Assembly (NCBI GenBank): GCA_017642445.1
Contig: JAGCPA010000092.1
Span: 1 to 64,000 of the forward strand
Direction: 5' to 3'
DNA from: Spirochaetia bacterium
Lineage (GTDB): Bacteria > Spirochaetota > Spirochaetia > CADAEX01
Length of the DNA stretch: 64,000 bases
The notes below the pieces were generated by a model. That model saw nothing but the letters and a program-made list of their open reading frames with translations. It was not told the origin of the DNA and did not search any database. The stretch's first letter is position 1, and each line of letters starts with the position of its first letter. The translations under genes were made by a program, and so were the position numbers. Below are positions 25,532 to 61,706 of the stretch, piece by piece.

Positions 25532-25558
25532 TTAGAAGACTCATAGGGAATATGAAGA

Positions 25559-27187: not shown

Positions 27188-27267
27188 AATAATAATAAAA
27201 ACATACGGGCAATTAGTAGTTAAATACCCATCCAGTTAATTAATTAAAGACCCTTTTGGAGGCTTTT

Positions 27268-29703: not shown

Positions 29704-29921
29704 ATAACGTTAAAATTGAATTTAGAGAATGGAACAGTGAATATATTTTTGCAAAGTTAAAAGAAGAGCATTATCCACTTCAAGCATTTATGGATAAGGC
29801 TTCAGATGATTTAAGAAAGGATATAAAAGGCTATTTTGAAAAATGTTCAAGGATGACTAAAACATTTGAATATCATCTAAATAAGTTAAGAATGAAATTA
29901 AAGGGACAGAATTCTTATTAA
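29700..29921 (+). CDS. Small 73-aa protein between rdrA and rdrB
   Basis: This short, basic, mostly helical protein has no recognised domain. TTG 29700 overlaps the rdrA stop by 4 bases and its own stop overlaps the rdrB ATG by 1 base (TAATG), so it is fully embedded in the operon and likely translated by coupling. No strong ribosome-binding site is seen. Described RADAR accessory proteins (for example membrane SLATT-type) look different; this one has no membrane segment. It may be a coupling peptide, an adaptor or an undescribed accessory subunit. Confidence 0.6.
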   Translation: MNNVKIEFREWNSEYIFAKLKEEHYPLQAFMDKASDDLRKDIKGYFEKCSRMTKTFEYHLNKLRMKLKGQNSY

Positions 29922-35074: not shown

Positions 35075-35076
35075 AG

Positions 35077-41490: not shown

Positions 41491-41518
41491 GAAATAGAAT
41501 AGGCAGGGAGATAAAAGA

Positions 41519-46979: not shown

Positions 46980-48884
46980 ATGAACCATATTAATATTAGT
47001 GAAAAAATTATATTGTCATTAAATGCTTTTTATAAGAAAAATCATAAAAAGCATAAAATTATTCATTCATTATTTCATCTTTTCCCTTTCAAAAACCGAA
47101 TAAGAAAATATCGTAATGCAAGTTTACAGAAACAAGCTAAAAAAATTAGAGAAGAAGAAAATCAGAAGAGCATACTTTATCAAGATCAATATGATTTATC
47201 GTTTGCAAAGAAAGCGAAGAAAGTTGTTATATTTATAGAAATAGAACCATATCCTATGTGTGGTGGACAAATGAATTTATTTTCTTGTTGTAAATATTCA
47301 CAACAAGTTTTAGGTGGTGATATACCAGTTTTAATGACAACAATGCCAGGTGATAACACCTATCATCATAATAACTATTTTATAAACAACATAGATATTT
47401 GCAGGTGGTCACAAATAATAGATATTTTGGCAAATAAAGAAGAGGCAATTATACACATTCCAGAAGTTGACATTTTAAATCCCGAGACGGGCGAAGAAAT
47501 GTTAAGGAGACGGTTGACAGTAGAAGATATAAAAGTACTAAAAAAAATTAATAATCTTAGAATTAATATTTTTGTTCAAGAAATTAATAAAATGCCTCCA
47601 AAAGAAAAATATAAATATTTATTTGATATAACTAATAATATTTCAATGACAACAGCTCACCCTGGATATTCAACACAGGATTGTTCAACTAAATTTAACC
47701 TGCCATTAAAAAGACTTTCATGTTTTATTGACCTAACCCCTTATGAAAAGTTTGCAAAAAACAAAATTGAAAAGATAATAATTTTATCTCCAGATTATAA
47801 TAATCCTTATCGCCAGTATATTGCACAAAAACTTAGAGAAAAGCTTGAAGGGTGGGAGATAATTGATTTTTACAGAATGACTTTTACCGAATGTATGGAA
47901 TTAACTAGCCGATCTTTTGCAACAATTACTTTTGGGGAGGGGCTTGATGGTTATTTTATTCACCCCATTGGCGTAAAACGTCTTGGATTTGCTGTATACA
48001 ATGAACAGTTTTTCCCAGATAGCTCATGGAAAAAACTATTTTGTTGCTATTCATCATGGGAAGAAATGGATGAAAAAATAGTAGATGATATAATCTTTTT
48101 ATATAATAATCCTAAGAAATATGAAGAAGCCGTTGAGGAATTAACTAAAAAAACAAAGAATGAATATGTTTTTGATGAATATATAAAATTTTTATCAGAT
48201 TTTTATAAAAATAAGTTTGATTTTTATCCACATAAATTTGTTTATATTGTTGGTGGAAATGGTTTTGCACGTGAATGTTATATTCACTTAAATGAAATTA
48301 TGGAAGAAAACCCTGAAATTAGCTTTGGTGGTTTTTTGGGGCACGGGGGATATGGTAAAACGGTTGATTATAAGGATTTTCAGATTTTTTATAAAGGAGA
48401 GGTCTCTGAGCATAAGTTCTTGGACAATGAATATGTTGTGATTGGTGCAGGATATCCTAAATTAAGAAAACAGATTTATAATGACTTGAAAAAGATGAAT
48501 TGTAAGTTTTATACATTGGTGTCTGGTTCAAAGACGATAAATAAATTTGTTGATATAGGCGAAGGAAATATATTTAATCATAGCTTCCCATCCCCAAATG
48601 TAAAGATTGGAAATGGAAATGTTTTTAATTATGAAGTAATTATTGCGCATGATGTTGAAATTGGGGATTTTAATTTTTTTGGTCCACGCAGTCAGATTTT
48701 AGGCGATGTTAAAATCGGAAACTCAAACACAGTTGGCGCAAATACCATTTTTTTACCACATTCTAAAGTGGGCAATAGCAATTCTATTGCACCGTTATCC
48801 TGTATATATAAAGGTTGCAAAAATAATTGTTACATTCAAGGAAACCCTGCATTAAAAATAGGAGATATTCAAAGTGAAATGTAA
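46980..48884 (+). CDS. Fusion: glycosyltransferase-like domain plus PglD/NeuD-like acyltransferase
   Basis: This 634-aa protein has residues 1-419 related to the preceding glycosyltransferase-like protein (FGEGLDGYFIHPIGV, as FGEGFDSYFIQPISV there). From residue 420 it is a complete sugar acyltransferase of the PglD/NeuD kind: Rossmann-like FVYIVGGNGFARE, then left-handed beta-helix hexapeptides (VKIGNGN, VEIGDFN, VKIGNSN) with the candidate catalytic base His557 (AHDVEIGD). PglD acetylates a 4-amino sugar nucleotide, so one protein may acylate and another domain transfer the amino sugar. It has its own promoter and overlaps the next gene by 11 bp. Confidence 0.78.
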   Translation: MNHINISEKIILSLNAFYKKNHKKHKIIHSLFHLFPFKNRIRKYRNASLQKQAKKIREEENQKSILYQDQYDLSFAKKAKKVVIFIEIEPYPMCGGQMNLFSCCKYSQQVLGGDIPVLMTTMPGDNTYHHNNYFINNIDICRWSQIIDILANKEEAIIHIPEVDILNPETGEEMLRRRLTVEDIKVLKKINNLRINIFVQEINKMPPKEKYKYLFDITNNISMTTAHPGYSTQDCSTKFNLPLKRLSCFIDLTPYEKFAKNKIEKIIILSPDYNNPYRQYIAQKLREKLEGWEIIDFYRMTFTECMELTSRSFATITFGEGLDGYFIHPIGVKRLGFAVYNEQFFPDSSWKKLFCCYSSWEEMDEKIVDDIIFLYNNPKKYEEAVEELTKKTKNEYVFDEYIKFLSDFYKNKFDFYPHKFVYIVGGNGFARECYIHLNEIMEENPEISFGGFLGHGGYGKTVDYKDFQIFYKGEVSEHKFLDNEYVVIGAGYPKLRKQIYNDLKKMNCKFYTLVSGSKTINKFVDIGEGNIFNHSFPSPNVKIGNGNVFNYEVIIAHDVEIGDFNFFGPRSQILGDVKIGNSNTVGANTIFLPHSKVGNSNSIAPLSCIYKGCKNNCYIQGNPALKIGDIQSEM

Positions 48885-49995
48885 TTTTAATCATGTCAAG
48901 ATCAAAGGAATAAAGACGGTTATTCCAGAACATTATATTGATATTGCCGATGAATTACAATATTTTGAAAACAATCCAAAAAAATTAGCTCGTGCTCAAA
49001 AAATGATAGGTTATGGTCGCCGTTATATTGCAGATGAGATGACAACAGTGACTGATTTGGCAGTTGATGCAGCGGAAAAGCTTCTAAGAGAGATGAATAT
49101 TAATCGAGAGGATATTGATTTATTGATATTTGTTAATCAGAAACCTGATTTTAAGGAACCAAATGATGCCTGTGTGGCTCATGGGAAATTGAATTTAAAG
49201 AAAACATGCTTCGCGCTGGATATTAATTCAGGGTGCACTGGATATATTCAAGGATTGATTACTGCTCATGCTCTAATGTCTACAGAAGCCTTTGATACAT
49301 GCCTACTCCTGGCTGGTGATTTATGTGGCAGAATGAATGATCAGAAAAATAGGAAAACAGCACCAGTCTTTGGAGATGCAGCATCAGCGACAATTTTGAA
49401 ATATTCAGCTGATGAAATAAAATCTGCATTTGTAATGGGAACAGATGGTAAAGGATATGATAAAATTATATATCCATTTGGCGGTACACACTTGCCATTT
49501 GATAAAGAATCTTTTGATATGACTGTTTTTGATGAGCAAGGAAATTATTGGAATAATAAATATGGTATAATGAAAGGCGAAGATGTCTTCAAATTTACGA
49601 TGGATGTTGCACCGCAATTGATTATTGATACAATGAAAGTGGCAAATTGGACAGCATCTGATGTAGATTTATTTGCTATCCATCAGGCCAACAAACAAAT
49701 TATTGAAAATATTGTTGCTAAGGCGGGTATTCCTGTAGAAAAAGCTCCTGCTGATGTTTTTTCAAAATATGCAAATAATTCAACAAATTCAGTTGTAACT
49801 GTTTTATCAGATCAAACAAAGACTTTAAATAAAGTAATTTTATGTGCTTTTGGCGTTGGACTGACTTGGGGAGGGGCAGCACTGGATTTGTCAGGGTGTT
49901 ATAATGGAGGTATTTCAACGTTTATTCCTCCCAACGACAAACTGACAAAAGAAGAGCAAATTAACTATTGGATCAAATATTTTAAAGGAGAATAA
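48874..49995 (+). CDS. Ketoacyl-ACP synthase III-like condensing enzyme, copy 1
   Basis: This 373-aa thiolase-fold enzyme has the KASIII triad: Cys121 (NSGCTGYIQG), His270 (FAIHQANKQ) and Asn301 (YANNS). It could condense an acyl-CoA with malonyl-ACP, or transfer an acyl group from an ACP. The triad retains Asn, which fits condensation; KASIII-like acyltransferases often change it. GTG 48874 is used because GGAG lies upstream and the sequence aligns with copy 2 from its first residues. A discrete ACP follows after 1 bp. Confidence 0.88.
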   Translation: MKCNFNHVKIKGIKTVIPEHYIDIADELQYFENNPKKLARAQKMIGYGRRYIADEMTTVTDLAVDAAEKLLREMNINREDIDLLIFVNQKPDFKEPNDACVAHGKLNLKKTCFALDINSGCTGYIQGLITAHALMSTEAFDTCLLLAGDLCGRMNDQKNRKTAPVFGDAASATILKYSADEIKSAFVMGTDGKGYDKIIYPFGGTHLPFDKESFDMTVFDEQGNYWNNKYGIMKGEDVFKFTMDVAPQLIIDTMKVANWTASDVDLFAIHQANKQIIENIVAKAGIPVEKAPADVFSKYANNSTNSVVTVLSDQTKTLNKVILCAFGVGLTWGGAALDLSGCYNGGISTFIPPNDKLTKEEQINYWIKYFKGE

Positions 49996-49996
49996 A

Positions 49997-50215
49997 ATGA
50001 CTAGAGATGAATTTTTAAATGAAATGGTAGAAGTACTACAGACAGAAGATGATATTTCGTTTGATACAGTTTTAGCTGATTTGGACGAGTGGGACTCTTT
50101 GTCTGTTATGGCAACAATGGCCTTTTTGGATAAATCTTTCGGAGTTAAGACTGAGATGAAAGATTATAAAATGATGAAAACAATTGGAGATATTGCAGCC
50201 AAGGCAGGATTATAA
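49997..50215 (+). CDS. Acyl carrier protein, copy 1
   Basis: This 72-aa protein has the 4'-phosphopantetheine attachment Ser34 in EWDSLSVMA and the acidic four-helix pattern of ACPs. GGAG precedes the ATG. It sits between KASIII copy 1 and an SDR, so it is likely the dedicated carrier for an acyl intermediate and not the housekeeping fatty-acid ACP. Confidence 0.88.
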   Translation: MTRDEFLNEMVEVLQTEDDISFDTVLADLDEWDSLSVMATMAFLDKSFGVKTEMKDYKMMKTIGDIAAKAGL

Positions 50216-50218
50216 AAT

Positions 50219-50953
50219 ATGATTTCTTTTTATAGAGAACAGGGGTTTATTGTTACAGGTGCATCTTCTGGGATAGGTGAAGGTGTGGCTTTGTTGCTAA
50301 ATGAACTTGGGGCGACGGTTGTAGCGATTGCTAGACGTGAAGATAAACTCAATGAAATGAAATTAAAAGCCAAAAATCCTGAAAATATCTTTATTGAAGT
50401 TAAAGATTTGACAGAAGATATCGAGGGGCTGCCTCTTTATGTTAAAACTTTAAGGGCAAAATATGGCAAGTTTCAGGGAATGGCTTATTGTGCTGGTTTA
50501 GGTGGAATCCATCCATTGCGTTCCGTTGATATGGAAACAATGCAAAAAATATTTGCAATCAATTATTTTGCACCAGTTTTTATGGCTAAGGGTTTTGCTG
50601 ATAAAAGAAACAATACAGGGCAAAGAAGTTCGATGGTATTTATAGCATCTGGAGGAGGTATTCATTGTGATCCAGGGATGACTTGTTATTCTGGTTCTAA
50701 GGGAGCATTGATTGCTACAATGCAATCAATTGCCAGAGAAATTGCACCGACTGGTGTTCGTGTTAATTGTGTATCACCATCATTAATTGAAACAAGTATG
50801 GCTGGTGAAATAGAACGCCAATATGCAGAAGGGAAATATCCTTTTGGACTAGGGAAGGTTTCTGATGTTGCCAATATGATTGTTTATTTGCTCTCTGAGC
50901 AATCTAAATGGATTACGGCACAAAACTACATTATTGATTGTGGAGCAATGTAA
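50219..50953 (+). CDS. Short-chain dehydrogenase/reductase (FabG-like), copy 1
   Basis: This 244-aa classical SDR has cofactor motif TGASSGIGE, NYF/NNAG-region variant YCAGLGGIH and catalytic YSGSK. The position beside ACP1 and KASIII suggests 3-ketoacyl-ACP reduction to 3-hydroxyacyl-ACP, but a sugar-oxidising role is possible. It starts 3 bp after ACP1 and ends 2 bp before KASIII copy 2. Confidence 0.85.
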   Translation: MISFYREQGFIVTGASSGIGEGVALLLNELGATVVAIARREDKLNEMKLKAKNPENIFIEVKDLTEDIEGLPLYVKTLRAKYGKFQGMAYCAGLGGIHPLRSVDMETMQKIFAINYFAPVFMAKGFADKRNNTGQRSSMVFIASGGGIHCDPGMTCYSGSKGALIATMQSIAREIAPTGVRVNCVSPSLIETSMAGEIERQYAEGKYPFGLGKVSDVANMIVYLLSEQSKWITAQNYIIDCGAM

Positions 50954-50955
50954 AA

Positions 50956-52098
50956 ATGTCAAAGTCAACGTTCAACCATGTTAAAATCAGAGGTATTACA
51001 TCTGTTGTTCCAGAAAAAGTTATTAATATTGATGATGAAATTGATTTTTTCAACAATGATTTAAAGCTTCTTGAACGCAATAAAAAAATATTAGGCTTGG
51101 GCACAAGACATGTTACAGATGATTGCACAACCAACTGTGACTTGTGCGAAGCTGCTGCAAGGGATTTAATTGATGCTTTGGCCGTTGACAAAAGTACAGT
51201 TGATGCTTTGATTGTTGTATCCTCTTCACATGATTACCATTATCCTGCTGATGCATGTATTTTACAAGGGCGGTTGGGCTTAAGCGAAGATTGTACTTGC
51301 TTTGATATTTCTGGTTTGGCATGTTCTGCTTATGTTCATGGATTGCTGCAGGCTCATGCTCTTATATCTACAGGTGTGGCAAAAAAAATATTGCTATTAT
51401 CTGGCGATATTACCAGCACTCATTCTGATCGGCGCAACCGTAATTCAAATATGCTTTTTGGGGACGCTGGTACAGCAACACTTTTGGAATGGACGGACGA
51501 AGAAAATACCGCTTGGTTTTATACAGGGACTCGTGGAAAAGATTGGAATAAACTGATTGCTCCAGCCGGGGGGTATGCTTTGCCTATAAGGGGAGATATT
51601 GCTGATTTGGAAATAACAGATAATGTTGGCAATGTTTGGCGGATGTATGATGATATCATGAAAGGACTTGATGTGTTCAAGTTTACTACAGAAATTGGGC
51701 CCAAAGGCATAGCAAAAGTTATGGAAATGAGTGGCAAGTCGATAGATGATATTGATTATTTCGCCTTTCATCAGGCGAATAAGCAAATTGTCAGAACGGT
51801 TGCAGGCTTTGCAAAACTGCCAAAAGACAAGTATTCCAGCGAAACATTCACACAGTATGGTAATTGTGGAGCAGCGGCAGTAACACTTGATATATGCCGT
51901 CATTTATCACAGCACAAAGTACAATCTCTTTGTTTGGCGACTTTTGGAGTTGGATTGTCCTTTGGTTTTTCTTTATTAAAAACCCAAAATACTTATATTG
52001 GTAAAATTAAATTATATAGAACACCCACAGGGAAAATGAATCGTCAGGAAAAAATAAAATATTGGATTTCTTACTTTAAAGAGGAAAACAATGCTTAA
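50956..52098 (+). CDS. Ketoacyl-ACP synthase III-like condensing enzyme, copy 2
   Basis: This 380-aa KASIII homolog is related to copy 1 (FNHVKIRGITSVVPE aligns with FNHVKIKGIKTVIPE). The triad is Cys123 (GLACSAYVHG), His272 (FAFHQANKQ) and Asn303 (YGNCG). ATG 50956 is chosen over TTG 50938, which lies inside the SDR gene. Two KASIII genes around one ACP and one SDR could perform successive condensations, or one may load and one transfer an acyl unit. The next SDR overlaps by 8 bp. Confidence 0.87.
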   Translation: MSKSTFNHVKIRGITSVVPEKVINIDDEIDFFNNDLKLLERNKKILGLGTRHVTDDCTTNCDLCEAAARDLIDALAVDKSTVDALIVVSSSHDYHYPADACILQGRLGLSEDCTCFDISGLACSAYVHGLLQAHALISTGVAKKILLLSGDITSTHSDRRNRNSNMLFGDAGTATLLEWTDEENTAWFYTGTRGKDWNKLIAPAGGYALPIRGDIADLEITDNVGNVWRMYDDIMKGLDVFKFTTEIGPKGIAKVMEMSGKSIDDIDYFAFHQANKQIVRTVAGFAKLPKDKYSSETFTQYGNCGAAAVTLDICRHLSQHKVQSLCLATFGVGLSFGFSLLKTQNTYIGKIKLYRTPTGKMNRQEKIKYWISYFKEENNA

Positions 52099-52834
52099 TG
52101 GCAAAACAGCTTTAATAACAGGAACCAATAGGGGAATAGGTCATGCAATTTTAGAAAAATTTGCAGAAAATAAAGCAAACATTTTTGCCCATGCAAGAAA
52201 AGAAACCCCAGATTTTATAGAAAAGATAAGCAGGCTATCTGAAAAATATAATATAACTATTACCCCCTTGTACTTTGATTTGTCTGACACCACAGCGTTA
52301 AAAGAAGAGATAAAAAATAAAATATTTAAAACAAACCAGAAAATAGATGTTTTAGTTAATACAGCAGGCATTGCCCACGGTGGGTTTTTTCAAATGACAC
52401 CTATTTCAAAAATAAAAGAGGTCTTTGATATAAATTTATTTGCCCAGATGGAAATAATTCAATTAATAATGAAAGTTATGATGAAAAACCAGAAAGGCAG
52501 TATTATCAACTTGGCTTCGGTTTTAGGTATTGATATAACAGCGGGCAGTTGTGCCTATGGGGTGTCAAAAGCCGCATTTATTGCTTTTACTAAAACACTT
52601 GCGGCTGAATATGCAAAATATAATATTAGAATTAATGCTGTTGCCCCTGGTTTAATTGATACCGATATGGCAAAGTTAATGGAAGCAGGTGCAAAGGAGA
52701 GGTTGTTAAATCAGTCTGCTATGCATCGATTGGGAAAGCCGGATGAAGTGGCTGATTTAGTTTTGTATTTGGCATCGGATAAATCTTCTTTTATCAATGG
52801 CCAGATAATAAGAGTTGATGGTGGAAAAGCATGA
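52091..52834 (+). CDS. Short-chain dehydrogenase/reductase (FabG-like), copy 2
   Basis: This 247-aa classical SDR has motif TGTNRGIGHA, NTAGIAHGG and catalytic YGVSK with Asn/Ser upstream (INLASVLG). Its sequence is closer to FabG than copy 1 is, so ketoacyl reduction is plausible. It overlaps KASIII copy 2 and ends in an ATGA overlap with the transketolase N-half. Confidence 0.87.
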   Translation: MLNGKTALITGTNRGIGHAILEKFAENKANIFAHARKETPDFIEKISRLSEKYNITITPLYFDLSDTTALKEEIKNKIFKTNQKIDVLVNTAGIAHGGFFQMTPISKIKEVFDINLFAQMEIIQLIMKVMMKNQKGSIINLASVLGIDITAGSCAYGVSKAAFIAFTKTLAAEYAKYNIRINAVAPGLIDTDMAKLMEAGAKERLLNQSAMHRLGKPDEVADLVLYLASDKSSFINGQIIRVDGGKA

Positions 52835-53640
52835 ATGATCTCAGGATAATCTCAAAAAGAATAAGAAAAGATATTTTATTAATGGGATTAAATACAGGTA
52901 ATCAGGGTTCGCACCTTGGAGGTTCCTTGTCATTGGTTGAAATTATGGCAGTGCTCTACGCCAGGGTATTGAACTTGGAAGATTTCAATTCTGAAAGCCG
53001 GGATAGGGTGATTCTTAGTAAAGGCCATGGTGTTATGGCCCAATATGCTGCTATGAAAGAAAACAACCTTCTTAAAGAAGATCTTCTGACTTTTAAACAG
53101 GATGGCAGCAAGCTTCCAGCTCATCCATCATTATTGCATAATCTACCAGGAATAGAATTCGCCACAGGTTCACTTGGACAAGGTTTATCTCTGGGAGTAG
53201 GCGTTGCCCTTGGCCTTAAGCGTAATAATAATGATAAATCAAAAGTTTATGTGGTCTTGGGTGATGGTGAGTGCAATGAAGGTTCTGTTTGGGAAGCTGC
53301 GATGTCTGCCGCACATTATAAACTAGATAATCTTATTGTCATTGTAGATAAAAATGGACTTCAATATGATGGAAAGACAGATGACGTTATGTCGATGGGT
53401 CTTCTTGATAAAAAATTTATGGCGTTCGGTTTTAAAGCAGTGTCGGTTGATGGACATAATGAGGAAGAAATATTGAATGCATTAAATATAGCACATGATA
53501 ATCAGCCTATGGCAATAATTGCAAATACGATAAAAGGGAAAGGTGTTTCGTTTATAGAGAATGATAAAACATGGCACAACAAGAGACTGACAAAAGAACA
53601 ATATGAACAGGCTATAGCTGAAGTGGAGTTAGAACGATGA
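52831..53640 (+). CDS. Transketolase-like protein, N-terminal (TPP-binding) half
   Basis: This 269-aa protein is the first half of a split transketolase. It has the thiamine diphosphate motif GDGECNEGSVWEA...KNGLQ and SKGHGVMAQYAA with the catalytic histidine region. The C-terminal half is the next gene (4-bp overlap), so they should form one heterodimeric enzyme. Split transketolases in glycan loci probably move a two-carbon ketol or form a C-C bond with an aldehyde, and are distinct from the pentose-phosphate enzyme. Confidence 0.92.
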   Translation: MNDLRIISKRIRKDILLMGLNTGNQGSHLGGSLSLVEIMAVLYARVLNLEDFNSESRDRVILSKGHGVMAQYAAMKENNLLKEDLLTFKQDGSKLPAHPSLLHNLPGIEFATGSLGQGLSLGVGVALGLKRNNNDKSKVYVVLGDGECNEGSVWEAAMSAAHYKLDNLIVIVDKNGLQYDGKTDDVMSMGLLDKKFMAFGFKAVSVDGHNEEEILNALNIAHDNQPMAIIANTIKGKGVSFIENDKTWHNKRLTKEQYEQAIAEVELER

Positions 53641-54614
53641 TTGATTATACCCCTATTAATATGAAGATTTGGTCAAGACTTGGTTCTTCTGGGGCTTACG
53701 GAATAGCAGCCGTTGAGGTGGTGCAGAATAATCCTAATATAGTTTTTTTAACAGCAGATGTATGTTCTTTTTCTGGCCTGGATAGATTAAGCGAGAATTA
53801 TCCGAAAAATTTTTATAATGTTGGTATTTCTGAACAAAATTTAATAGGAATTGCGGCAGGCCTTGCAAAAGAAGGGTTTATCCCATTTGTGTCAACTTAT
53901 GCCGCCTTTGACAGTTTAAGGGCTGCCGATCAAATAAAAGTTAATATGGGATATATGAATTTACCAGTAAAAATAGTTGGTTTGACCTCAGGACTTTCGG
54001 TTGGAATTCTAGGACCCACTCATTTCTGCAACGAGGATATTGCTTTAATACGAAGCCTCCCTAATATCATAATTATTTCTCCAGCTGATTGTACAGAAAC
54101 AATCAAAGCAACGATTGCGTCGGCAAAGATTAATGCACCAGTATATTTGAGGCTTACTGGAGGAATTAATAATCCCCCGGTTTATAAAAGCGATTATGAT
54201 TTCGAGATTGGAAAAGCAATAACAATTAAAGATGGAAATGATATTGCAATTATTGCGACAGGCTCAATGGTTTTCAATTCTTTGTCTGCAGCAAAGCTTC
54301 TTGAAGAAGAAGGGATTAGTGTTAAAGTAGTTAATATGCATACTATTAAACCTTTAGATGTTGATGCTGTGAGAGAATGTTTTAACACAAAGCTTATTAT
54401 AACAGTTGAAGAACATTCTGTTTATGGAGGACTGGGAAGTGCTGTTTCCGAAGTGGTTGCCATGTCCCCCAACAGCCCTCCCCAAAGGATTTTAGGGTTG
54501 TCAGATGAGTATAAAGCAGCGGGCTCTTATACCTACCTGATTGATCAATATGAATTGAATCTTAATCAAATAAAAGAAAAAATATTAAAAACTTATAAGG
54601 AGATTACAAAATGA
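53637..54614 (+). CDS. Transketolase-like protein, C-terminal half (Pyr plus C-terminal domains)
   Basis: This 325-aa protein supplies the pyrimidine-binding and C-terminal domains of the split transketolase. The TPP-activating glutamate is in YNVGISEQNLIGIAAGLA, with FDSLRAADQIK after it. The C-terminal domain has TVEEHSVYGGLGSAV. It starts in the stop codon region of the N-half and overlaps ACP2 by 4 bp, tying carbon-carbon chemistry to the carrier protein. Confidence 0.92.
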   Translation: MIDYTPINMKIWSRLGSSGAYGIAAVEVVQNNPNIVFLTADVCSFSGLDRLSENYPKNFYNVGISEQNLIGIAAGLAKEGFIPFVSTYAAFDSLRAADQIKVNMGYMNLPVKIVGLTSGLSVGILGPTHFCNEDIALIRSLPNIIIISPADCTETIKATIASAKINAPVYLRLTGGINNPPVYKSDYDFEIGKAITIKDGNDIAIIATGSMVFNSLSAAKLLEEEGISVKVVNMHTIKPLDVDAVRECFNTKLIITVEEHSVYGGLGSAVSEVVAMSPNSPPQRILGLSDEYKAAGSYTYLIDQYELNLNQIKEKILKTYKEITK

Positions 54615-54853
54615 CAAATCTAGAGATTTATACAAAGGTATTTGTTGATACATTTGGAATTTCAGAAGAGGAGGCAAAGGTATTAAAATTTCAGGATATC
54701 AAGGCATGGGACTCTGTGGGACATATGGGGCTTATTGCAAACCTGGAAGAAGCTTTCAATATTATGATGGAGACCGATGATATCATCGACCTTAATTCTT
54801 TTGAGAAAGGAAAAGAACTATTAGCAAAATATGATATTGATTTTGCTAAGTAA
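54611..54853 (+). CDS. Acyl carrier protein, copy 2
   Basis: This 80-aa ACP-like protein has candidate phosphopantetheine Ser35 in AWDSVGHMG. It differs clearly from ACP1, so each carrier may serve a separate set of partners. It lies between the transketolase C-half and a metallo-beta-lactamase-fold hydrolase, both within 4 bp. Confidence 0.85.
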   Translation: MTNLEIYTKVFVDTFGISEEEAKVLKFQDIKAWDSVGHMGLIANLEEAFNIMMETDDIIDLNSFEKGKELLAKYDIDFAK

Positions 54854-54855
54854 AT

Positions 54856-55563
54856 ATGGATTTTTTTCATATTGATGATTTAACAATATATCGGTCAGTC
54901 TATAAATATATTAATTCCAACATGTACATCCTTGTTGAGGAAGACAGGGCTTTTGTTGTTGATCCTCATGAGGATGTATATGCGATAAGTTTATTAGAAA
55001 AAGTAAAAAATGTAATTATACTACTGACCCATGAGCATACAGACCATACATCAGGTATATATTGGTTCCAGCAGAAATTTCCAAGTAAGCTTATTTGTAC
55101 AAAAAAATGTTCGGATTATATTTCTTTGGAAGAAAATAGACGCCCCATCCTGATCAGCTTTATTCTTGAGGAGCAGGATAGGTTAAATGGGACAAATCTT
55201 CTTGAAGAATTTAAAAAACAATATGTTCCCCAAACATATAAAGCAGATATAACTTTTGAGGATAGCCTTATAGAGCAATGGGGTAGCCATAAACTTGAGT
55301 TTTTTAAGGTTTTGGGGCACTCTCCGGGTTCCTGTGGTATAATTTTTGATAATAAGATTGCATTTATGGGGGATTCTTTGATGAAGGATTTACCTATAAT
55401 TACCCGATTCCCCCGAGGAAACAAGAAAGTATATATAAACGAGACATTGCCATTCCTAGAACAGAAATTGAAAGAAGATATGATGATTATGCCAGGACAT
55501 GGAAATCCTTTTTTATTGAGTGATATAATGAAAGGTGGAAAGATAAATGTGGAATTTAGATAA
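54856..55563 (+). CDS. Metallo-beta-lactamase-fold hydrolase (glyoxalase II-like)
   Basis: This 235-aa MBL-fold enzyme has the metal motif LLTHEHTDHTSG (HxHxDH), then GHSPGSCGI, FMGDSLM and a final MPGHG. The overall pattern resembles thioester hydrolases of the glyoxalase II type. In this setting it may release an acyl group from an ACP or CoA thioester, either as an off-loading or an editing step. It starts 2 bp after ACP2 and overlaps the AMP ligase by 17 bp. Confidence 0.86.
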   Translation: MDFFHIDDLTIYRSVYKYINSNMYILVEEDRAFVVDPHEDVYAISLLEKVKNVIILLTHEHTDHTSGIYWFQQKFPSKLICTKKCSDYISLEENRRPILISFILEEQDRLNGTNLLEEFKKQYVPQTYKADITFEDSLIEQWGSHKLEFFKVLGHSPGSCGIIFDNKIAFMGDSLMKDLPIITRFPRGNKKVYINETLPFLEQKLKEDMMIMPGHGNPFLLSDIMKGGKINVEFR

Positions 55564-56962
55564 ATATGGACAAAATATAGCTGTAGTTACTGAAAATGGA
55601 CAAAAAGTAACATACTCTGAATTTAATTCACACTGCAAAAATTTAACAATGAATATTCCATCTCGATGTCTTGTCTTTAACCTTTGCAGGAATGAAATCG
55701 GATCCTTGGTTGGTTATATTGGATTCTTAAACGCAAGAATAGTCCCTCTTATGCTAAAGGCAGACCTTGATGATGAACTGCTTGGACATTGTCTTGAAAC
55801 ATATAAGCCAGATTATATTTATGTTCCTAAAGATCAGAAGTCAAGATTCTCGGATTATCGGTGTGTTTATGAAAAATTAGATTATGCACTTCTTAAAACC
55901 CCCTTTAATCACGAATATAAACTTTTTGATGACCTAGCACTGCTTTTGACAACATCTGGCTCTACGGGTAGTCCTAAGTTGGTTCGGCAGAGTTACAGAA
56001 ACATAGAGGCCAATACAAAATCGATAGTGGAATACTTGAAGCTGGATTCGACAGAACGTCCAATCACAACTCTTCCTATGAACTATACATACGGTATTTC
56101 CATTTTAAATACCCATCTATGGGTGGGTGCTAGTATTATCCTGACCGAAAAGGGATTGATGCAAAAAGAATTCTGGCAGCAGTTCAAAGAGTATGAGGCA
56201 ACATCATTTGGGGGCGTTCCATATACATACGAGATGTTGGCGCGGCTTCGGTTCTTTATGATGAGTTTACCATCTTTGCGGTACATGACCCAGGCAGGTG
56301 GAAAATTATCTCCAGAATTGCACGAAAAGTTTGCAGAATGGGCTTTAAAAAATGGAAAGAAGTTCATTGTTATGTATGGACAGACAGAAGCTACTGCAAG
56401 AATGAGCTATTTGCCAGCAGAGAAGTCCTTGGAGAAATATGGATCAATGGGAATTGCAATTCCCAGAGGAAAGTTATCTCTTATAGATGTTGATGGCAAG
56501 ACAATAACAGAGCCGGAAACGGTAGGCGAGCTGGTTTATGAAGGAGAAAACGTTACCCTTGGGTATGCTCAGTGCGGAGAAGATCTTTCTCTTGGGGATG
56601 AGCGGCATGGCAGGCTTATTACGGGAGATATGGCAAAGTTTGATAACGACGGCTTCTTCTATATTGTTGGAAGAAAAAAACGGTTTCTGAAAATATATGG
56701 AAACAGGGTTAATCTTGATGAGACCGAGCGGTTGATAAAAGCACATTTCCCAGAAATTGAATGTGCTTGTGCCGGAGTTGACGACAATATGAAGATTTTC
56801 ATAACAGACGATTCTTATAAAGATAAGATAATTACTTTTATATCTGAGAAGACAGGATTAAACAGAGCTGCTTTCGGAGTTAGTGTCATAAGCGAGATTC
56901 CCAAGAATGAGGCTGGAAAAACATTATATAGTGAATTAGAGAAGACAATTGGAAAAGCTTAA
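55547..56962 (+). CDS. AMP-forming acyl-CoA/ACP ligase (ANL family)
   Basis: This 471-aa adenylate-forming enzyme has the P-loop-like LLTTSGSTGSPKLVR, the YGQTEA motif, the RLITGDMAKFDNDGF segment with conserved Asp, and a C-terminal domain with the catalytic lysine region NEAGKTLYSE. It is somewhat shorter than acyl-CoA synthetases (about 550) because the N-terminal domain is compact. It probably activates a short acid and loads it on an ACP or CoA. ATG 55547 follows AGGTGG inside the MBL gene. Confidence 0.88.
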   Translation: MWNLDKYGQNIAVVTENGQKVTYSEFNSHCKNLTMNIPSRCLVFNLCRNEIGSLVGYIGFLNARIVPLMLKADLDDELLGHCLETYKPDYIYVPKDQKSRFSDYRCVYEKLDYALLKTPFNHEYKLFDDLALLLTTSGSTGSPKLVRQSYRNIEANTKSIVEYLKLDSTERPITTLPMNYTYGISILNTHLWVGASIILTEKGLMQKEFWQQFKEYEATSFGGVPYTYEMLARLRFFMMSLPSLRYMTQAGGKLSPELHEKFAEWALKNGKKFIVMYGQTEATARMSYLPAEKSLEKYGSMGIAIPRGKLSLIDVDGKTITEPETVGELVYEGENVTLGYAQCGEDLSLGDERHGRLITGDMAKFDNDGFFYIVGRKKRFLKIYGNRVNLDETERLIKAHFPEIECACAGVDDNMKIFITDDSYKDKIITFISEKTGLNRAAFGVSVISEIPKNEAGKTLYSELEKTIGKA

Positions 56963-57617
56963 AATAATCAACAATACTACAATTATAGAGGCCGATACTG
57001 CAGATGTTGTTTCTAAAGGCGATATTGTTAAAATATCTTTACCAACGTCCAACGAGAATGAGATTTTGATGTTCAATAATGGATTTAAGCTGGTGGAACG
57101 TACTATCCAGACCGATATTCATGTTTTGAAGATTGATTTGAATCTTGATAAACTAATCAGATTAAATGTGGAAGAAACAACCAAATATAAAAAGGAAATA
57201 GAAAATATTGCATTAAAGTCTTTTCCTTATGACAGAAGATTTCATCTGCGAATAAATTTTGATGATGAGGATCTATTTGAGTCAATCATGAAAGAATGGA
57301 TAGATGACTTGGAGTCTGTCTTGGTTGCTAAATTCAAAGATACTGTTGTGGGCTTTCTGGCATTGAAAGAAACAGCAGAAGATACATTATTTGTTCATCT
57401 GGCTGCGGTTGACGAGAAGTATAGATTGACCGGGGCAGCCATGTCTCTTTATTCAAAAGCGGTTCAGATTGCAAAAGATAAGGGCTATAAAACACTTGAG
57501 GGGCGGATCAGCACAAGAAATACAGCTGTTATGAATCTATATTCATATTTTGATGCTCATTTTGAAAACCCTATAGATATTTACCTACGGGAATATGACA
57601 AGGAAAATCAACAATGA
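56949..57617 (+). CDS. GNAT-family N-acyltransferase
   Basis: This 222-aa protein has a divergent first 100 residues and a C-terminal GNAT domain: VAKFKDTVVGFLALKE, then FVHLAAVDEKYRLTGAAMSLY in the acyl-CoA-binding beta4-alpha3 region, and RISTRNTAVMNLY. It resembles WecD/FdtC-like sugar acyltransferases. It is a candidate to attach the carrier-bound acyl to the amino sugar. TTG 56949 overlaps the ligase gene; no stronger start is seen. LuxE overlaps by ATGA. Confidence 0.8.
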   Translation: MEKLKIINNTTIIEADTADVVSKGDIVKISLPTSNENEILMFNNGFKLVERTIQTDIHVLKIDLNLDKLIRLNVEETTKYKKEIENIALKSFPYDRRFHLRINFDDEDLFESIMKEWIDDLESVLVAKFKDTVVGFLALKETAEDTLFVHLAAVDEKYRLTGAAMSLYSKAVQIAKDKGYKTLEGRISTRNTAVMNLYSYFDAHFENPIDIYLREYDKENQQ

Positions 57618-58690
57618 ATTTAGAAAAATTTCATGAAATTGAACCATATGGATTAAGCAAAACTGAAAAAGAAAAAATATTCTTTGACGAGATGCTTGCT
57701 TTGACAGAATATCATGCAAGTAAATGCAACGAGTATAACAATATTTTGTGTAAACTTGGTATTGATATAAATTCCATTAAGAATATTGAAGAGATTCCTT
57801 ATATTCCTGTCAGATTGTTTAAGATGTTTGACCTGAAAAGCATAACCGCTGAAGAAATCTTTAAGACAATGACATCTTCCGGAACAACAGGCCAGTCTGT
57901 ATCAAAAATATTTTTAAGTAAGGAAAATACACTTAATCAGACAAAGACATTGACCCATATTATTTCATCTTTCATCGGCAAGCAGAGATTGCCACTGCTT
58001 CTTCTGGATACTGAAATGGTAAAGAAAGACCGCAGCATGTTTTCTGCCCGCGGAGCTGGAATCATAGGGTTTACAACCTTTGGAAGAAATATAACCTATG
58101 CCCTTGATGAAAATATGCAGTTAGATATTAATAAGGTTGAGCAGTTTTTGGCAGAACATAATGACGAAACCATCCTGATGTTTGGATATACATATATGAT
58201 CTGGCAGTTTGTTGTCAAAGAACTGGAAAAACAGAACAAGCATTTTAATATTAAAAACGGAATTCTATTCCATATCGGAGGCTGGAAAAAGCTTAAGGCC
58301 GAGGCAATTGATACAATATCATATAACAAACGCATCCAGTGTGTTCTGGGAAATGTTCATGTTTATAACTATTATGGTATGGCAGAGCAGCTGGGTTCTG
58401 TATTTGTAGAGTGTGAACATGGTCATATGCATTGTTCAAATTATTCAGATATAATAATTCGTAAACCACAGGATTTCTCTGTTTGCCCAACGGGGGAAAG
58501 AGGACTTATTCAGTTGTTATCCGTTTTGCCATCCAGTTATCCAGGGCATTCTATTCTGACAGAAGATGAGGGAATTGTTCTTGGAGAAGATGATTGTCCT
58601 TGTGGAAGAAAGGGTAAATATTTCAAAATACTTGGACGCATTAAGAATGCAGAAATAAGAGGATGTTCAGATACATATGAAAAACATTGA
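57614..58690 (+). CDS. LuxE-like acyl-protein synthetase
   Basis: This 358-aa protein resembles LuxE, which activates a fatty acid as acyl-AMP and hands it to LuxC. The adenylation P-loop region reads MTSSGTTGQSVSK, with EIPYIPVRLFK ahead of it as in the family. The C-terminal region contains cysteines (CPCG, near residues 332-335) of uncertain role. Its fusion by overlap to a LuxC-type reductase (14 bp) strongly supports the assignment. No luxAB luciferase genes are nearby, so it serves biosynthesis. Confidence 0.88.
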   Translation: MNLEKFHEIEPYGLSKTEKEKIFFDEMLALTEYHASKCNEYNNILCKLGIDINSIKNIEEIPYIPVRLFKMFDLKSITAEEIFKTMTSSGTTGQSVSKIFLSKENTLNQTKTLTHIISSFIGKQRLPLLLLDTEMVKKDRSMFSARGAGIIGFTTFGRNITYALDENMQLDINKVEQFLAEHNDETILMFGYTYMIWQFVVKELEKQNKHFNIKNGILFHIGGWKKLKAEAIDTISYNKRIQCVLGNVHVYNYYGMAEQLGSVFVECEHGHMHCSNYSDIIIRKPQDFSVCPTGERGLIQLLSVLPSSYPGHSILTEDEGIVLGEDDCPCGRKGKYFKILGRIKNAEIRGCSDTYEKH

Positions 58691-59852
58691 ATATTTAATT
58701 GGCAATGATAATATTAATGTGAAACCACTGCAGACTTTCTCTCCCGAGGCATGTAGTTTTTTGAATGAATTGTCTTCTGTAATACTAAAATCTCCGGCAG
58801 CAAGACAGTATCCTGACTTGTCTGCAGTTGCATTCTGGTGCCGTAAGGCAAATATAGATAAGAAAAAGAGCATTGTTAATGATTATAGCTGTCGCCTTGG
58901 CCGTGGGCTGTGTTTTCATATAGCACCTTCTAATATCCCGGTTAATTTTGCCTTCTCGTTCTTTTTCAGTCTGTTGTCAGGGAACGCAAACATTGTCCGG
59001 ATTCCAAGTAAAGAGTTTGAACAAGTAAGTGTTCTAATTAGTTTTATTAAGGATGTGTTAGAAAAATACCCAGCAATCAAAGAGAGAACAGCATTTGTCA
59101 AATACGAGCGGGACAATGAGATTTCCGAGAGTTTCTCTATGATAGCAGATGCAAGAATGATTTGGGGTGGAGATAAGACGATAGAGATAATGAGGAATTT
59201 GAAAACAAAACCAAGGTGTATTGATATAACCTTTGCAGACAGATATTCAATTTGTATTATTGATGCAGAAAAAGTTTTATCCCTTGATGATGTAAAGTTG
59301 AAGCGACTGTCTGAGAATTTTTATAATGATACTTTTCTAATGGATCAGAATGCATGTTCTTCTCCCCAGATGATTTATTGGGTCAATGATAATGAACAAG
59401 GACGCAGAATCTTCTGGAATGCCGTTGAGAAAACTGTAAAAAACAAATATCATCTTCAGGATGCCGTTTGTGTTGACAAGTATACAAAAGCCTGTGAGGA
59501 TTCAATAAAAAGCGGCGATATCATTGATAAAATAATGTACGATGATAATTACCTTTACCGATGTGAAATCAAGGAGATTATCCCCAATGTTGAAAACTTA
59601 AGAGGGAAGTGTGGATATTTCTATGAATACTCCTTGAACGGTTTCAACAATCTGTTTGATGTTGTCGATTCAAAATATCAAACTATTACTTATTTCGGTA
59701 TTGATCCAGAAAAGTTGTTACAGGCGGTTGTTGAAAACAAGCTTGTAGGAATAGATAGGATTGTTCCTATTGGAAAAGCAATGGATATAGATGCAATTTG
59801 GGATGGTCATAATCTTGTTGCAGAGCTATCAAGATTTATTAATATAGAATAA
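58677..59852 (+). CDS. LuxC-like acyl-CoA/acyl-protein reductase
   Basis: This 391-aa aldehyde-dehydrogenase-fold enzyme reduces an activated acyl group to an aldehyde with NAD(P)H. The catalytic cysteine is Cys227 in MDQNACSSPQ, and GRGLCFHIAPSNIPVN is a LuxC-family cofactor segment. It overlaps LuxE. Together they would turn an acyl acid or acyl-ACP into an aldehyde, which a TPP-dependent transketolase could use. It is shorter than LuxC of luminous bacteria (about 480). Confidence 0.88.
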   Translation: MKNIEYLIGNDNINVKPLQTFSPEACSFLNELSSVILKSPAARQYPDLSAVAFWCRKANIDKKKSIVNDYSCRLGRGLCFHIAPSNIPVNFAFSFFFSLLSGNANIVRIPSKEFEQVSVLISFIKDVLEKYPAIKERTAFVKYERDNEISESFSMIADARMIWGGDKTIEIMRNLKTKPRCIDITFADRYSICIIDAEKVLSLDDVKLKRLSENFYNDTFLMDQNACSSPQMIYWVNDNEQGRRIFWNAVEKTVKNKYHLQDAVCVDKYTKACEDSIKSGDIIDKIMYDDNYLYRCEIKEIIPNVENLRGKCGYFYEYSLNGFNNLFDVVDSKYQTITYFGIDPEKLLQAVVENKLVGIDRIVPIGKAMDIDAIWDGHNLVAELSRFINIE

Positions 59853-59859
59853 AAAAGAT

Positions 59860-60804
59860 ATGTACATAGTTAACAAAATTGGTAATAGAAAAGTGGCAAT
59901 TATTGGAGCCGGCTTTGTTGGTAGTTCTATTGCCTATGCTCTGGCATTACGAGATATTGCTAGAAAAATCGTCTTAGTAGATGTTGTTCAGGAAAAAGCT
60001 GCAGGAGAAGCTAAGGATATTCGGCATGGAATCCCTAACATGGGAACCGTTGATTTATATGCAGGTGATTATTCAGACTGTAAAGATTGTGATTTAATTG
60101 TTATTACTGCTGGCCGTAACCGAAGAGACGGAGAATCCCGCCTTGATATGGCCAATGAGAATATAACAATAATGAAAGATGTTATTACATCTATTAAACA
60201 ATATTATACCAGAGGAGTTCTTCTAATTATCTCTAACCCTATAGATATTCTTGTTCAAAAAGTATCTGAATGGATGGACCTTCCAAATGGAATGATAATG
60301 GGTTCTGGCTGCGTTCTTGATACTTCAAGATTTATCCGGTCAATTGCAGATTATGTTGGCTTGAGTACTGGTGTAGTCAGTGGTTATGTTGTAGGAGAAC
60401 ATGGAGATAGTCAGGTGCCGCTTTGGAGCAGCGTAAGGATTGGAGGCATCCCAATTCAAGAGTATTGTTCTGCATGCAATATTAAATGGAATGATGAGAT
60501 TAAGAATAAAATTGCTTTGCAAACAAAGAAAATGGGAACAGAAATAATCAAGGCAAAAGGAAAGACTCATTACGGAATTGCCACATGTGTTTGCTATTTA
60601 GCAGATGCAATTATTAATCAAAAGCCGACTATTGCATCGGTATGTTCTCCGCTTATGGGCGAGCATGGGGTAAGGGGGGTTTCTCTGTCTGTTCCTTCTG
60701 TAGTTGGAGCAGCTGGTGTTCAGCAGCGAATTCGGGAGCGTTGGGCTCCAGATGAATATAAAAAGTTTTTTGAATCTGTAGAACAGGTTAGAAATAGTCT
60801 TTAA
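59860..60804 (+). CDS. LDH/MDH-superfamily 2-hydroxyacid dehydrogenase with Arg at the specificity position
   Basis: This 314-aa enzyme has L-lactate-dehydrogenase layout: IGAGFVGSSIAYAL, VLDTSRF (Asp154, Arg157) and the catalytic GEHGDSQVPLWS (His181). In the active-site loop TAGRNRRDGESRL, Arg88 occupies the place of Gln102 of Bacillus stearothermophilus LDH, where Arg gives oxaloacetate/malate preference; Arg94 matches Arg109. The rest looks LDH-like, so malate or another 2-keto diacid is the likely substrate. Its place between luxC and rfbA suggests a biosynthetic role in the glycan. ATG 59860 follows the luxC stop by 7 bp. Confidence 0.87.
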   Translation: MYIVNKIGNRKVAIIGAGFVGSSIAYALALRDIARKIVLVDVVQEKAAGEAKDIRHGIPNMGTVDLYAGDYSDCKDCDLIVITAGRNRRDGESRLDMANENITIMKDVITSIKQYYTRGVLLIISNPIDILVQKVSEWMDLPNGMIMGSGCVLDTSRFIRSIADYVGLSTGVVSGYVVGEHGDSQVPLWSSVRIGGIPIQEYCSACNIKWNDEIKNKIALQTKKMGTEIIKAKGKTHYGIATCVCYLADAIINQKPTIASVCSPLMGEHGVRGVSLSVPSVVGAAGVQQRIRERWAPDEYKKFFESVEQVRNSL

Positions 60805-60827: not shown

Positions 60828-61706
60828 ATGAAAGGAATTATTCTTGCTGGAGGATCTGGAACAAGATTATACCCTATTACAAAAGCAGTATCTAAACAAC
60901 TTCTTCCAGTATATGACAAACCAATGGTTTATTATCCTTTGTCGGTTTTGATGCTGGCAGGAATAAAAGATATTCTAATTATTTCAACCAGAAGCGACTT
61001 GTTCCTGTATGAGAAACTTCTTGGCAGTGGTGAGAATCTGGGCATGAATTTCCAGTATAAGGTTCAGGATACTCCTCGTGGACTCGCTGATGCTTTTATT
61101 ATAGGCAAAGACTTTATTGGGCAGGATTCTGTTGTGATGATATTAGGTGACAATATCTTCTATGGACAGGGGTTGCCAACCATATTAAGGCAAGGTCGCG
61201 AAACAGTTGAAAAAACAAATAATGCAGTAATATTCGGCTATTTTGTAAAAGATCCAACAGCATATGGAGTTGTCGAGTTTGATGATAGTTGGAAAGCTAT
61301 TTCTATAGAGGAGAAACCTTCCAAACCGAAATCTAATTATGCAGTTCCCGGATTATACTTCTATCCTAATGATGTTATCCAAAAAGCAGAAAACACTAAA
61401 CCTTCAGCCAGAGGTGAAATAGAAATAACCTCAATAAACAATGACTATATAGCAGAAAATAAGCTTAAGGTTCAACTCTTGGGGCGTGGTTTTGCTTGGC
61501 TTGATACAGGAACTTATGATGGTCTTTTGGAGGCTTCAAATTATGTAGCTACAATTCAGAAGCGACAGGGTCTTTATGTTTCCTGTATTGAGGAAATTGC
61601 ATATCGCAAAAAATGGATATCTAAAGAACAGTTGTTGAATTTGGCAGCTGGTTATAAAACAGATTATGGTACATATTTAAAGTATATTGCAGAGTATTTA
61701 TCATGA
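60828..61706 (+). CDS. rfbA: Glucose-1-phosphate thymidylyltransferase
   Basis: RfbA makes dTDP-glucose, the first step of dTDP-rhamnose synthesis. It has 292 aa, typical. Signature motifs are [20 protein letters not shown] and [16 protein letters not shown], with [10 protein letters not shown] and [18 protein letters not shown] later. A strong GGTGGAGG precedes the ATG. It is the first of four co-directional rhamnose genes and overlaps rfbB by ATGA. Confidence 0.98.

What the first reader, a model, noticed from the sequence alone, without database searches (positions are those of the whole stretch)
46980..60804. Acyl-aldehyde and carbon-carbon chemistry block inside a glycan operon: possible undescribed sugar-modification pathway
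The sequence shows two KASIII, two ACPs, two SDRs, a split transketolase, an MBL thioesterase-like protein, an AMP ligase, a GNAT, LuxE, LuxC and an LDH-fold enzyme, nearly all overlapping or within 8 bp. By family knowledge KASIII/SDR/ACP build a (hydroxy)acyl chain, LuxE/LuxC reduce an acyl to an aldehyde, and transketolases join C2 units to aldehydes. I infer a pathway making an unusual acyl or branched higher-carbon group that ends on the amino-deoxysugar encoded just upstream. I know of no described pathway with this full set.
Basis: partly seen in the sequence, partly recalled or inferred. Interest (0 to 1): 0.85.

Follow-up and report, generated by a model that had tools for sequence, protein, structure and literature searches.

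The report
Transketolase-extended acyl-group module for glycans
A gut spirochaete carries a block of genes, shared with distantly related bacteria, that most likely builds an unusual polyhydroxy acid, using a reductase pair to make an aldehyde and a specialised transketolase to lengthen it by two carbons, and attaches that acid to an amino sugar on the cell surface.

Summary
The genes are all there, in one overlapping operon, and the exact 13-gene order recurs in an alphaproteobacterium (L008). Comparing 80 LuxE-anchored loci splits it into three modules: (A) ACP-ligase-LuxE-LuxC, near universal; (B) SDR-TktN-TktC, in 34 of 50 well-flanked loci, replaced in 9 by an unrelated thiamine enzyme, never both; (C) KASIII-ACP-SDR-KASIII, optional. 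Module A has the gene content of the Vibrio cholerae O1 tetronate operon. Cassette transketolases form their own clade, keep thiamine and donor residues, but lost acceptor residues H461 and D469 in 49/49 copies (kept in 13/13 housekeeping-type copies); neighbouring changes were engineered into E. coli transketolase for carboxylate-bearing substrates. Best model: an acid (probably malate) is reduced to its semialdehyde, lengthened by C2, reduced, loaded on ACP2 and placed on the 4-amino sugar. Core plus transketolases was seen in Dickeya zeae EC1 without a function. New variant of a known kind; product unproven.

The parts
42296..43678 (+). NDP-hexose 2,3-dehydratase (TylX3-like): start of the 2-deoxy amino sugar route
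   Evidence: Pfam PF03559 E 1e-123
43689..44663 (+). GFO/IDH/MocA oxidoreductase, probable 3-ketoreductase
   Evidence: Pfam; role inferred from neighbours
44657..45790 (+). DegT-family sugar 4-aminotransferase (DesI-like)
   Evidence: Pfam PF01041; best NCBIfam TIGR04427 PLP_DesI 274 bits, below its cut-off
45783..46922 (+). unknown protein, probable glycosyltransferase-like, paralogue of the N-terminal part of the next gene
   Evidence: no Pfam hit; 39% identity to residues 60-417 of the 46980 protein; fold prediction failed
46980..48884 (+). fusion: unknown glycosyltransferase-like domain plus NeuD/PglB/VioB-like sugar acyltransferase
   Evidence: Hexapep; TIGR03570 at residues 421-624, 105 bits, below cut-off
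48874..49995 (+). KS1, KASIII (module C)
   Evidence: Pfam PF08545/PF08541; Cys, His and Asn conserved 41/41
49997..50215 (+). ACP1 (module C)
   Evidence: PF00550; Ser 14/14
50219..50953 (+). SDR1, probable 3-ketoacyl reductase (module C)
   Evidence: Pfam
50938..52098 (+). KS2, KASIII in a clade separate from KS1 (module C)
   Evidence: Pfam; tree and Asn 41/41
52091..52834 (+). SDR2, travels with the transketolase (module B); proposed reducer of the C2-extended ketone
   Evidence: Pfam; an SDR lies within about one gene of 38 of 48 cassette TktC
52831..53640 (+). TktN, thiamine-diphosphate-binding half of the split transketolase (module B)
   Evidence: PF00456; H26 45/45, H66 44/45, H100 38/45, G114 45/45
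53637..54614 (+). TktC, pyrimidine and C-terminal half; acceptor pocket altered (R358S, S385F, H461T, D469L in E. coli numbering)
   Evidence: PF02779/PF02780; clade and residue analysis
54611..54853 (+). ACP2 of the core module (A)
   Evidence: Ser 59/59; present in 49 of 50 well-flanked LuxE loci
54856..55563 (+). metallo-beta-lactamase-fold hydrolase, proposed thioesterase (LuxD-like role)
   Evidence: PF00753; metal ligands 17/17; never with the TEII-type thioesterase, 13 v 5 loci, not significant
55547..56962 (+). AMP-forming acyl ligase, proposed loader of ACP2 (module A)
   Evidence: PF00501; best PDB relatives are oxalate-CoA ligases; 471 aa, the length given for WbeL
56949..57617 (+). 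GNAT, WecD-like sugar N-acyltransferase, proposed to move the acyl group onto the 4-amino sugar
   Evidence: PF00583; best NCBIfam match WecD, near full length but 34 bits v 219 cut-off
57614..58690 (+). LuxE-like acyl-protein synthetase (module A)
   Evidence: PF04443 E 2e-55; C-terminal Cys 75/75
58677..59852 (+). LuxC-like acyl-thioester reductase (module A)
   Evidence: PF05893 E 4e-31; catalytic Cys 69/69, aligned with LuxC structure 7xc6
59860..60804 (+). LDH-fold enzyme with malate-type Arg at position 102: proposed supplier of malate or a related 2-hydroxy dicarboxylate
   Evidence: PF00056/PF02866; Arg in 14/14 cassette copies
60828..63322 (+). rfbA, rfbB, rfbC: dTDP-4-keto-6-deoxyglucose supply
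   Evidence: read from translations; relatives of 47-74% identity in cassette loci

Best explanation
A glycan N-acyl-group pathway. Shown by sequence: the gene set, its modularity and intact active sites. Inferred: the reactions. LuxE activates a carboxyl group, most likely one end of a hydroxy-dicarboxylic acid such as malate supplied by the malate-type dehydrogenase, and LuxC reduces it to an aldehyde (malic semialdehyde, possibly while the other end sits on ACP2). The dedicated split transketolase adds a two-carbon ketol unit from a donor such as hydroxypyruvate. SDR2 reduces the new ketone, giving a linear C6 acid, 2,4,5,6-tetrahydroxyhexanoate (a 3-deoxyhexonic acid). Ligase plus ACP2 hold it as a thioester, the MBL protein edits or hydrolyses mis-loaded ACP, and the WecD-like GNAT transfers it to the 4-amino-2,4,6-trideoxyhexose made by the TylX3/GFO/DegT genes from dTDP-4-keto-6-deoxyglucose. 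KS1-ACP1-SDR1-KS2 is a separate plug-in that probably makes a second short hydroxyacyl group, for example 3-hydroxybutyryl or 3,5-dihydroxyhexanoyl.
For: Core A has the gene content of the V. cholerae O1 tetronate region (VC0248-0252), and an Enterobacterales locus shows ACP-ligase-Fe-ADH-fused LuxE/LuxC of 825 aa (L137). Where no transketolase is present, ACP-SDR-ligase-LuxE-LuxC is found (Deinococcus, Ponticoccus), as if the aldehyde is simply reduced. Transketolase linkage: 34 of 50 LuxE loci; in reverse, 3 of 3 Lachnospiraceae, 2 of 2 Spirochaetota, and the 10 best TktC records among 299 plasmids are the 10 Rhizobium plasmids with LuxE. A different thiamine enzyme, mostly with a NeuB-family (PEP-condensing) protein, replaces it in 9 loci, never both. 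Cassette TktC is its own clade: H461 and D469 lost 49/49, R358 lost in 26/49, bulky residue at S385 in 26/49, while E411, H473 and donor-side residues H26, H66, G114 stay. Engineered E. coli transketolase R358I/H461S/R520Q takes 5-ketogluconate to tartaric semialdehyde, essentially the reverse of the proposed step on a one-oxygen-richer analogue (PMC12016104); S385Y/D469T/R520Q accepts formylbenzoate with hydroxypyruvate (PMC10787763). The LDH-fold enzyme has malate-type Arg in 14/14. GNAT is WecD-like. The genome has a separate, ordinary transketolase.
Against: No product has been measured. Malate is an inference; the LDH-fold enzyme passes the L-lactate dehydrogenase cut-off and is present in only 13 of 80 loci. 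Pairwise distances of TktC and LuxE barely correlate (rho 0.085), so the modules reshuffle rather than co-evolve. GNAT is absent from more than half of the loci. ACP2 lies within 1.5 kb of TktC in only 20 of 48. Loss of the sugar-phosphate pocket also argues against ordinary sugar-phosphate donors, and no hydroxypyruvate source has been shown. The R520 position could not be aligned safely.
Confidence: 0.5

Rival explanations
1. One reading: KASIII/ACP/SDR build a hydroxyacyl chain, LuxE/LuxC reduce that chain to an aldehyde, and the transketolase lengthens it into a branched or higher-carbon group.
For: All genes share one operon; 19 of 23 well-flanked KASIII loci also have the transketolase; the full order recurs in L008.
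Against: 15 of 34 transketolase loci have no KASIII, and the Rhizobium and Dickeya sets lack it, so the chain cannot be the obligate aldehyde precursor. Nothing points to a branched sugar.
Confidence: 0.15
2. Four-carbon product only: the operon makes tetronate (2,4-dihydroxybutyryl) as in V. cholerae O1, and the transketolase serves something else, for example another sugar.
For: Core A has the tetronate gene content; modules A and B re-assort.
Against: Transketolase is linked to LuxE in every direction tested and has an acceptor pocket unlike housekeeping copies; no Fe-ADH in the window operon.
Confidence: 0.15
3. Glycolyl-ACP route (as recalled for NapB/NapD in naphthyridinomycin): the transketolase passes a C2 unit from a ketose to ACP2, giving a hydroxyacetyl thioester that is extended or transferred.
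For: TktC and ACP2 overlap in the window and lie within 1.5 kb in 20 of 48 cases.
Against: No lipoyl domain or E2-like protein for the needed oxidation; does not explain the constant LuxE/LuxC; TktC often lies on the other side of LuxE from ACP2.
Confidence: 0.1
4. Liposugar: the genes make a long-chain fatty aldehyde or fatty acyl group on the glycan, as suggested for flagellin islands.
For: Family names LuxE, LuxC, FadD, FabG; proposed in PMC4875605 and PMC7874193.
Against: LuxE and LuxC score far below the long-chain equivalog cut-offs (73 v 550, 45 v 750 bits); the LuxC match to the long-chain enzyme starts only at its residue 133; ligase best matches are small-acid ligases; no chain-elongation set in many loci; leaves the transketolase unexplained.
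Confidence: 0.08

Closest known systems
Vibrio cholerae O1 tetronate genes VC0248-VC0252 (rfb/wbe KLMNO)
   Same: ACP, 471-aa AMP ligase and LuxE-LuxC next to perosamine (4-amino sugar) genes; product is an N-linked short hydroxy acid (operon order read from the look-alike L137, and memory)
   Different: LuxE and LuxC fused; Fe-ADH reduces the aldehyde; no transketolase, SDR pair, KASIII, MBL or malate-type dehydrogenase
Dickeya zeae EC1 flagellar-cluster insert W909_12275-12315
   Same: acyl-CoA reductase, LuxE, FadD-type ligase, TktA and TktB, two FabG, ACP, acetyltransferase (PMC4522980); same layout in L156
   Different: no KASIII module, MBL or GNAT listed; authors thought it unrelated to flagella and gave no function
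Aeromonas group II and Enterobacteriaceae flagellin glycosylation islands
   Same: ACP, SDR, AMP ligase, LuxE, LuxC next to sugar genes
   Different: no transketolase mentioned; proposed to add a liposugar
Split transketolase of Carboxydothermus hydrogenoformans (6yaj)
   Same: two-chain architecture, closest solved relative; thiamine and donor residues
   Different: keeps R358, H461 and D469; general transketolase, other clade
LuxCDE fatty acid reductase of luminous bacteria
   Same: LuxE and LuxC families with conserved cysteines
   Different: no LuxD or luciferase in the operon; scores far below long-chain cut-offs; MBL takes the LuxD-like place
Treponema denticola flagellin glycan with a 2-methoxy-4,5,6-trihydroxyhexanoyl amide (recalled, not checked here)
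   Same: the acyl group is an O-methylated 3-deoxyhexonic acid, the proposed product
   Different: no biosynthetic genes assigned as far as recalled; paper not in the library

Membership tests
V. cholerae O1 tetronate pathway | ACP + AMP ligase + LuxE + LuxC together | tested here: met
V. cholerae O1 tetronate pathway | iron-containing alcohol dehydrogenase between ligase and LuxE/LuxC | tested here: not met
   no Fe-ADH among operon genes; present in L137
V. cholerae O1 tetronate pathway | product 2,4-dihydroxybutyryl amide | not testable with these tools
   needs NMR/MS
Transketolase (ordinary, sugar-phosphate) | thiamine site and catalytic Glu, donor histidines | tested here: met
   E411 49/49, H26 45/45, H66 44/45, G114 45/45, H473 48/49
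Transketolase (ordinary, sugar-phosphate) | acceptor residues R358, H461, D469 | tested here: not met
   H461 0/49, D469 0/49, R358 23/49; window has Ser, Thr, Leu
Lux long-chain fatty acid reductase | LuxE/LuxC at equivalog level | tested here: not met
   72.9 v 550 and 44.8 v 750 bits
Lux long-chain fatty acid reductase | active-site cysteines of LuxE and LuxC | tested here: met
   75/75 and 69/69
KASIII condensing enzymes | Cys-His-Asn triad | tested here: met
   41/41 for each residue
L-lactate dehydrogenase | Gln at position 102 | tested here: not met
   Arg in 14/14, aligned with Gln of 1a5z; overall score passes the LDH cut-off, 311 v 303.6
WecD-type sugar N-acyltransferase | NCBIfam equivalog cut-off | tested here: not met
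   34 v 219 bits, near full-length match

The most novel reading that the evidence does not exclude
A previously undescribed, widely shared pathway makes linear 3-deoxyhexonic acid (2,4,5,6-tetrahydroxyhexanoyl) N-acyl groups on surface sugars, with a transketolase that evolved away from sugar phosphates to join a C2 ketol unit to a carboxylic semialdehyde, and with a PEP/NeuB-like version as its natural alternative.
Probability: 0.35. Interest if true: 0.8.

Novelty: new variant of a known kind. Interest (0 to 1): 0.62.

Why it matters
It would give a function to a gene set so far written off as fatty-acid genes in O-antigen and flagellin islands, across spirochaetes, Gastranaerophilales, Clostridia, rhizobia and enterobacteria. 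It would add a C-C bond-forming transketolase to surface glycan chemistry, and show that nature had already changed the residues that biocatalysis groups mutate to broaden transketolase. It turns an open question (where do polyhydroxyhexanoyl groups on bacterial glycans come from) into enzyme assays.

Tried and rejected
Structure prediction of the 45783 protein without an alignment failed (mean pLDDT 33.7), so no fold search was made. Literature searches for the Treponema denticola glycan paper and for the original V. cholerae pathway paper found only citing papers. Mirror-tree comparison of modules showed no coupling between transketolase and LuxE/LuxC, which speaks against a tight co-evolving complex. 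MBL v TEII thioesterase exclusivity is suggestive but not significant (p 0.31). The small ACP-MBL-LuxE-LuxC clusters of other Treponema-family genomes (L095, L096, L099, L100) lack the ligase and, in the one read in full (L096), lie outside a sugar locus, so they were not counted as members. A phage LuxE-like hit (24.9% identity) was not followed. R520 was left out of the counts because the alignment around it shifts by one.
Full report
WHAT WAS CHECKED. The window is one contig stretch (G000:C91) of a 1.70 Mb genome that falls in the same class as Treponema-family genomes, so the organism is a spirochaete (the Treponema-family genomes were reached through the named locus L061). Three genomes of the same genus have no LuxE or cassette-type TktC, so the locus is accessory. 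Its best relatives by LuxE are from Gastranaerophilales and Alphaproteobacteria, which suggests lateral transfer.

All reported families are present, at the reported places and in the reported order, in an operon from 42296 to 63322 whose genes mostly overlap. All active sites examined are intact. KS1 and KS2 belong to two separate clades that each recur in other phyla, so they are not a recent local duplication.

MODULES. A LuxE search over 84,980 species genomes gave 80 loci in many phyla. Mapping window genes, clustering all their ORFs and counting show three modules. In 50 loci with at least 6 kb each side: A = LuxC 50, ligase 49, ACP2 49; B = TktN and TktC 34; C = KASIII 23. Nine loci carry instead an acetolactate-synthase-type thiamine enzyme, mostly followed by a NeuB-family protein and preceded by a FabA-like protein (families named); none has both (Fisher p 4.6e-6, although loci are not independent). 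Caveat: the 80 loci are those nearest to the window's LuxE, so frequencies are not those of all LuxE homologues.

REVERSE TESTS. Starting from TktC rather than LuxE: Lachnospiraceae, 348 genomes, cassette-type TktC in 3, LuxE within about 5 kb in all 3, although LuxE occurs in only 23. Spirochaetota, 393 genomes: TktC of at least 55% identity in 2, both beside LuxE. Plasmids: of 299 records with a TktC match, the 10 best are the 10 Rhizobium plasmids that carry LuxE; the annotated R. anhuiense locus reads transketolase, transketolase, acyltransferase, small protein in the ACP position, AMP-binding protein, then aminotransferase, LuxE-like, acyl-CoA reductase, SDR.

WHAT THE TRANSKETOLASE TELLS. 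The cassette TktC proteins form one clade apart from other split transketolases of the same genomes, and the window's genome has its own separate transketolase. Using E. coli TktA itself for numbering, the thiamine Glu411 and residues H26, H66, H100, G114 and H473 are kept in most or all (donor role of H66, H100, G114, H473 from PMC7661550). His at 100 in the window speaks for a ketol donor rather than pyruvate. H461 and D469 are kept in 13 of 13 housekeeping-type chains and in none of 49 cassette chains; the window has R358S, S385F, H461T, D469L. In E. coli, R358I/H461S/R520Q improves use of 5-ketogluconate and yields tartaric semialdehyde (PMC12016104), and S385Y/D469T/R520Q lets the enzyme take formylbenzoic acids with hydroxypyruvate (PMC10787763). 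The natural cassette enzymes thus look like transketolases for an unphosphorylated aldehyde without an alpha-hydroxyl group, which malic semialdehyde is (inference).

WHAT THE CORE TELLS. In V. cholerae O1 the tetronate genes VC0248-0252 make the 2,4-dihydroxybutyryl group on perosamine (PMC3441752), and RfbN holds a LuxE domain (PMC4772473). I could not fetch that operon by name, but an Enterobacterales locus shows its recalled layout: ACP, ligase, Fe-ADH and an 825-aa LuxE-LuxC fusion (L137). Elsewhere an SDR stands in for the Fe-ADH (Deinococcus, Ponticoccus, most of the Enterobacterales loci read). So a series is seen: the same aldehyde-forming core followed by an alcohol dehydrogenase, by a single SDR, by SDR plus transketolase, or by the alternative thiamine enzyme with a PEP-type condensing enzyme. 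Each is a plausible fate of an aldehyde. The malate-type Arg in all 14 cassette-linked LDH-fold enzymes fits malate as the starting acid, but that enzyme is present in only 13 of 80 loci. That Gln to Arg at 102 marks malate specificity is established knowledge, not tested here.

END OF THE PATHWAY. The TylX3-like dehydratase, GFO reductase and DesI-like aminotransferase with rfbABC would make a dTDP-4-amino-2,4,6-trideoxyhexose (inference from family knowledge). Two acyltransferases are at hand: the WecD-like GNAT next to LuxE and the NeuD/VioB-like domain of the 46980 protein. Wzm/Wzt-like transporter genes at 40690-42259 suggest export of the finished glycan. The KASIII module is absent from 15 of 34 transketolase loci, so it probably makes a second acyl group.

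PRIOR NOTICE. The core plus two transketolases and two FabG was described in the flagellar cluster of Dickeya zeae EC1 and judged unlikely to concern flagella (PMC4522980); the core alone was noted in Enterobacteriaceae and Aeromonas flagellin islands as possible liposugar genes. No paper found here assigns the transketolase version a function. From memory only, T. denticola flagellin carries a 2-methoxy-4,5,6-trihydroxyhexanoyl amide, which would be the O-methylated form of the proposed product; a Treponema-family genome does carry modules A and B next to rfbBAC (L097).

WEAK POINTS. No chemistry was measured. Distances of TktC and LuxE across loci hardly correlate, so modules are mixed freely. 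The donor is unknown. Classification: new variant of a known kind, with a real chance that the product itself is new as an assigned pathway.

Noticed in passing
window 27256-32200: Adjacent RdrA-like (27256-29703, PADLOC E 1e-29) and RdrB-like adenosine deaminase (29921-32200, E 2.6e-27) genes: a divergent RADAR-type defence pair directly upstream of the glycan locus.
   Followed up: partly
window 14513-27187: Other likely defence genes: PifA-like KAP NTPase 15778-18120 (E 2e-74), ApeA_NTD1 protein 18154-19497, PDC-S31-like 22754-23770, D12 DNA methylase 24689-25531 (PD-Lambda-5_B, E 1e-115), AAA_15 ATPase 25559-27187. Looks like a defence island beside the glycan locus.
   Followed up: partly
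window 32201-36021: CDP-glucose genes rfbF and rfbG (both over NCBIfam cut-offs) followed by a 4-hydroxy-2-oxovalerate-aldolase-like protein and a D-2-hydroxyacid dehydrogenase: possibly a second unusual sugar or acid in the same glycan.
   Followed up: no
L036 4583-7895 and similar loci: Recurring trio FabA-like, acetolactate-synthase-type thiamine enzyme and NeuB-family protein beside ACP-ligase-LuxE-LuxC, the thiamine enzyme never together with the transketolase: a second uncharacterised chain-extension route.
   Followed up: partly
L095, L096, L099, L100: Treponema-family genomes with a compact ACP-MBL-LuxE(-LuxC) cluster without the ligase: a LuxCDE-like unit with an MBL protein in place of LuxD.
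   Followed up: partly
window 45783-46922 and N-terminal part of 46980-48884: Two paralogous proteins without any Pfam family (39% identical), one fused to a NeuD-like acyltransferase; possibly a new glycosyltransferase family.
   Followed up: partly
window 1-29000 v 32200-63322: G+C drops from 39.7% to 33.4% at the glycan locus, in line with lateral acquisition.
   Followed up: no
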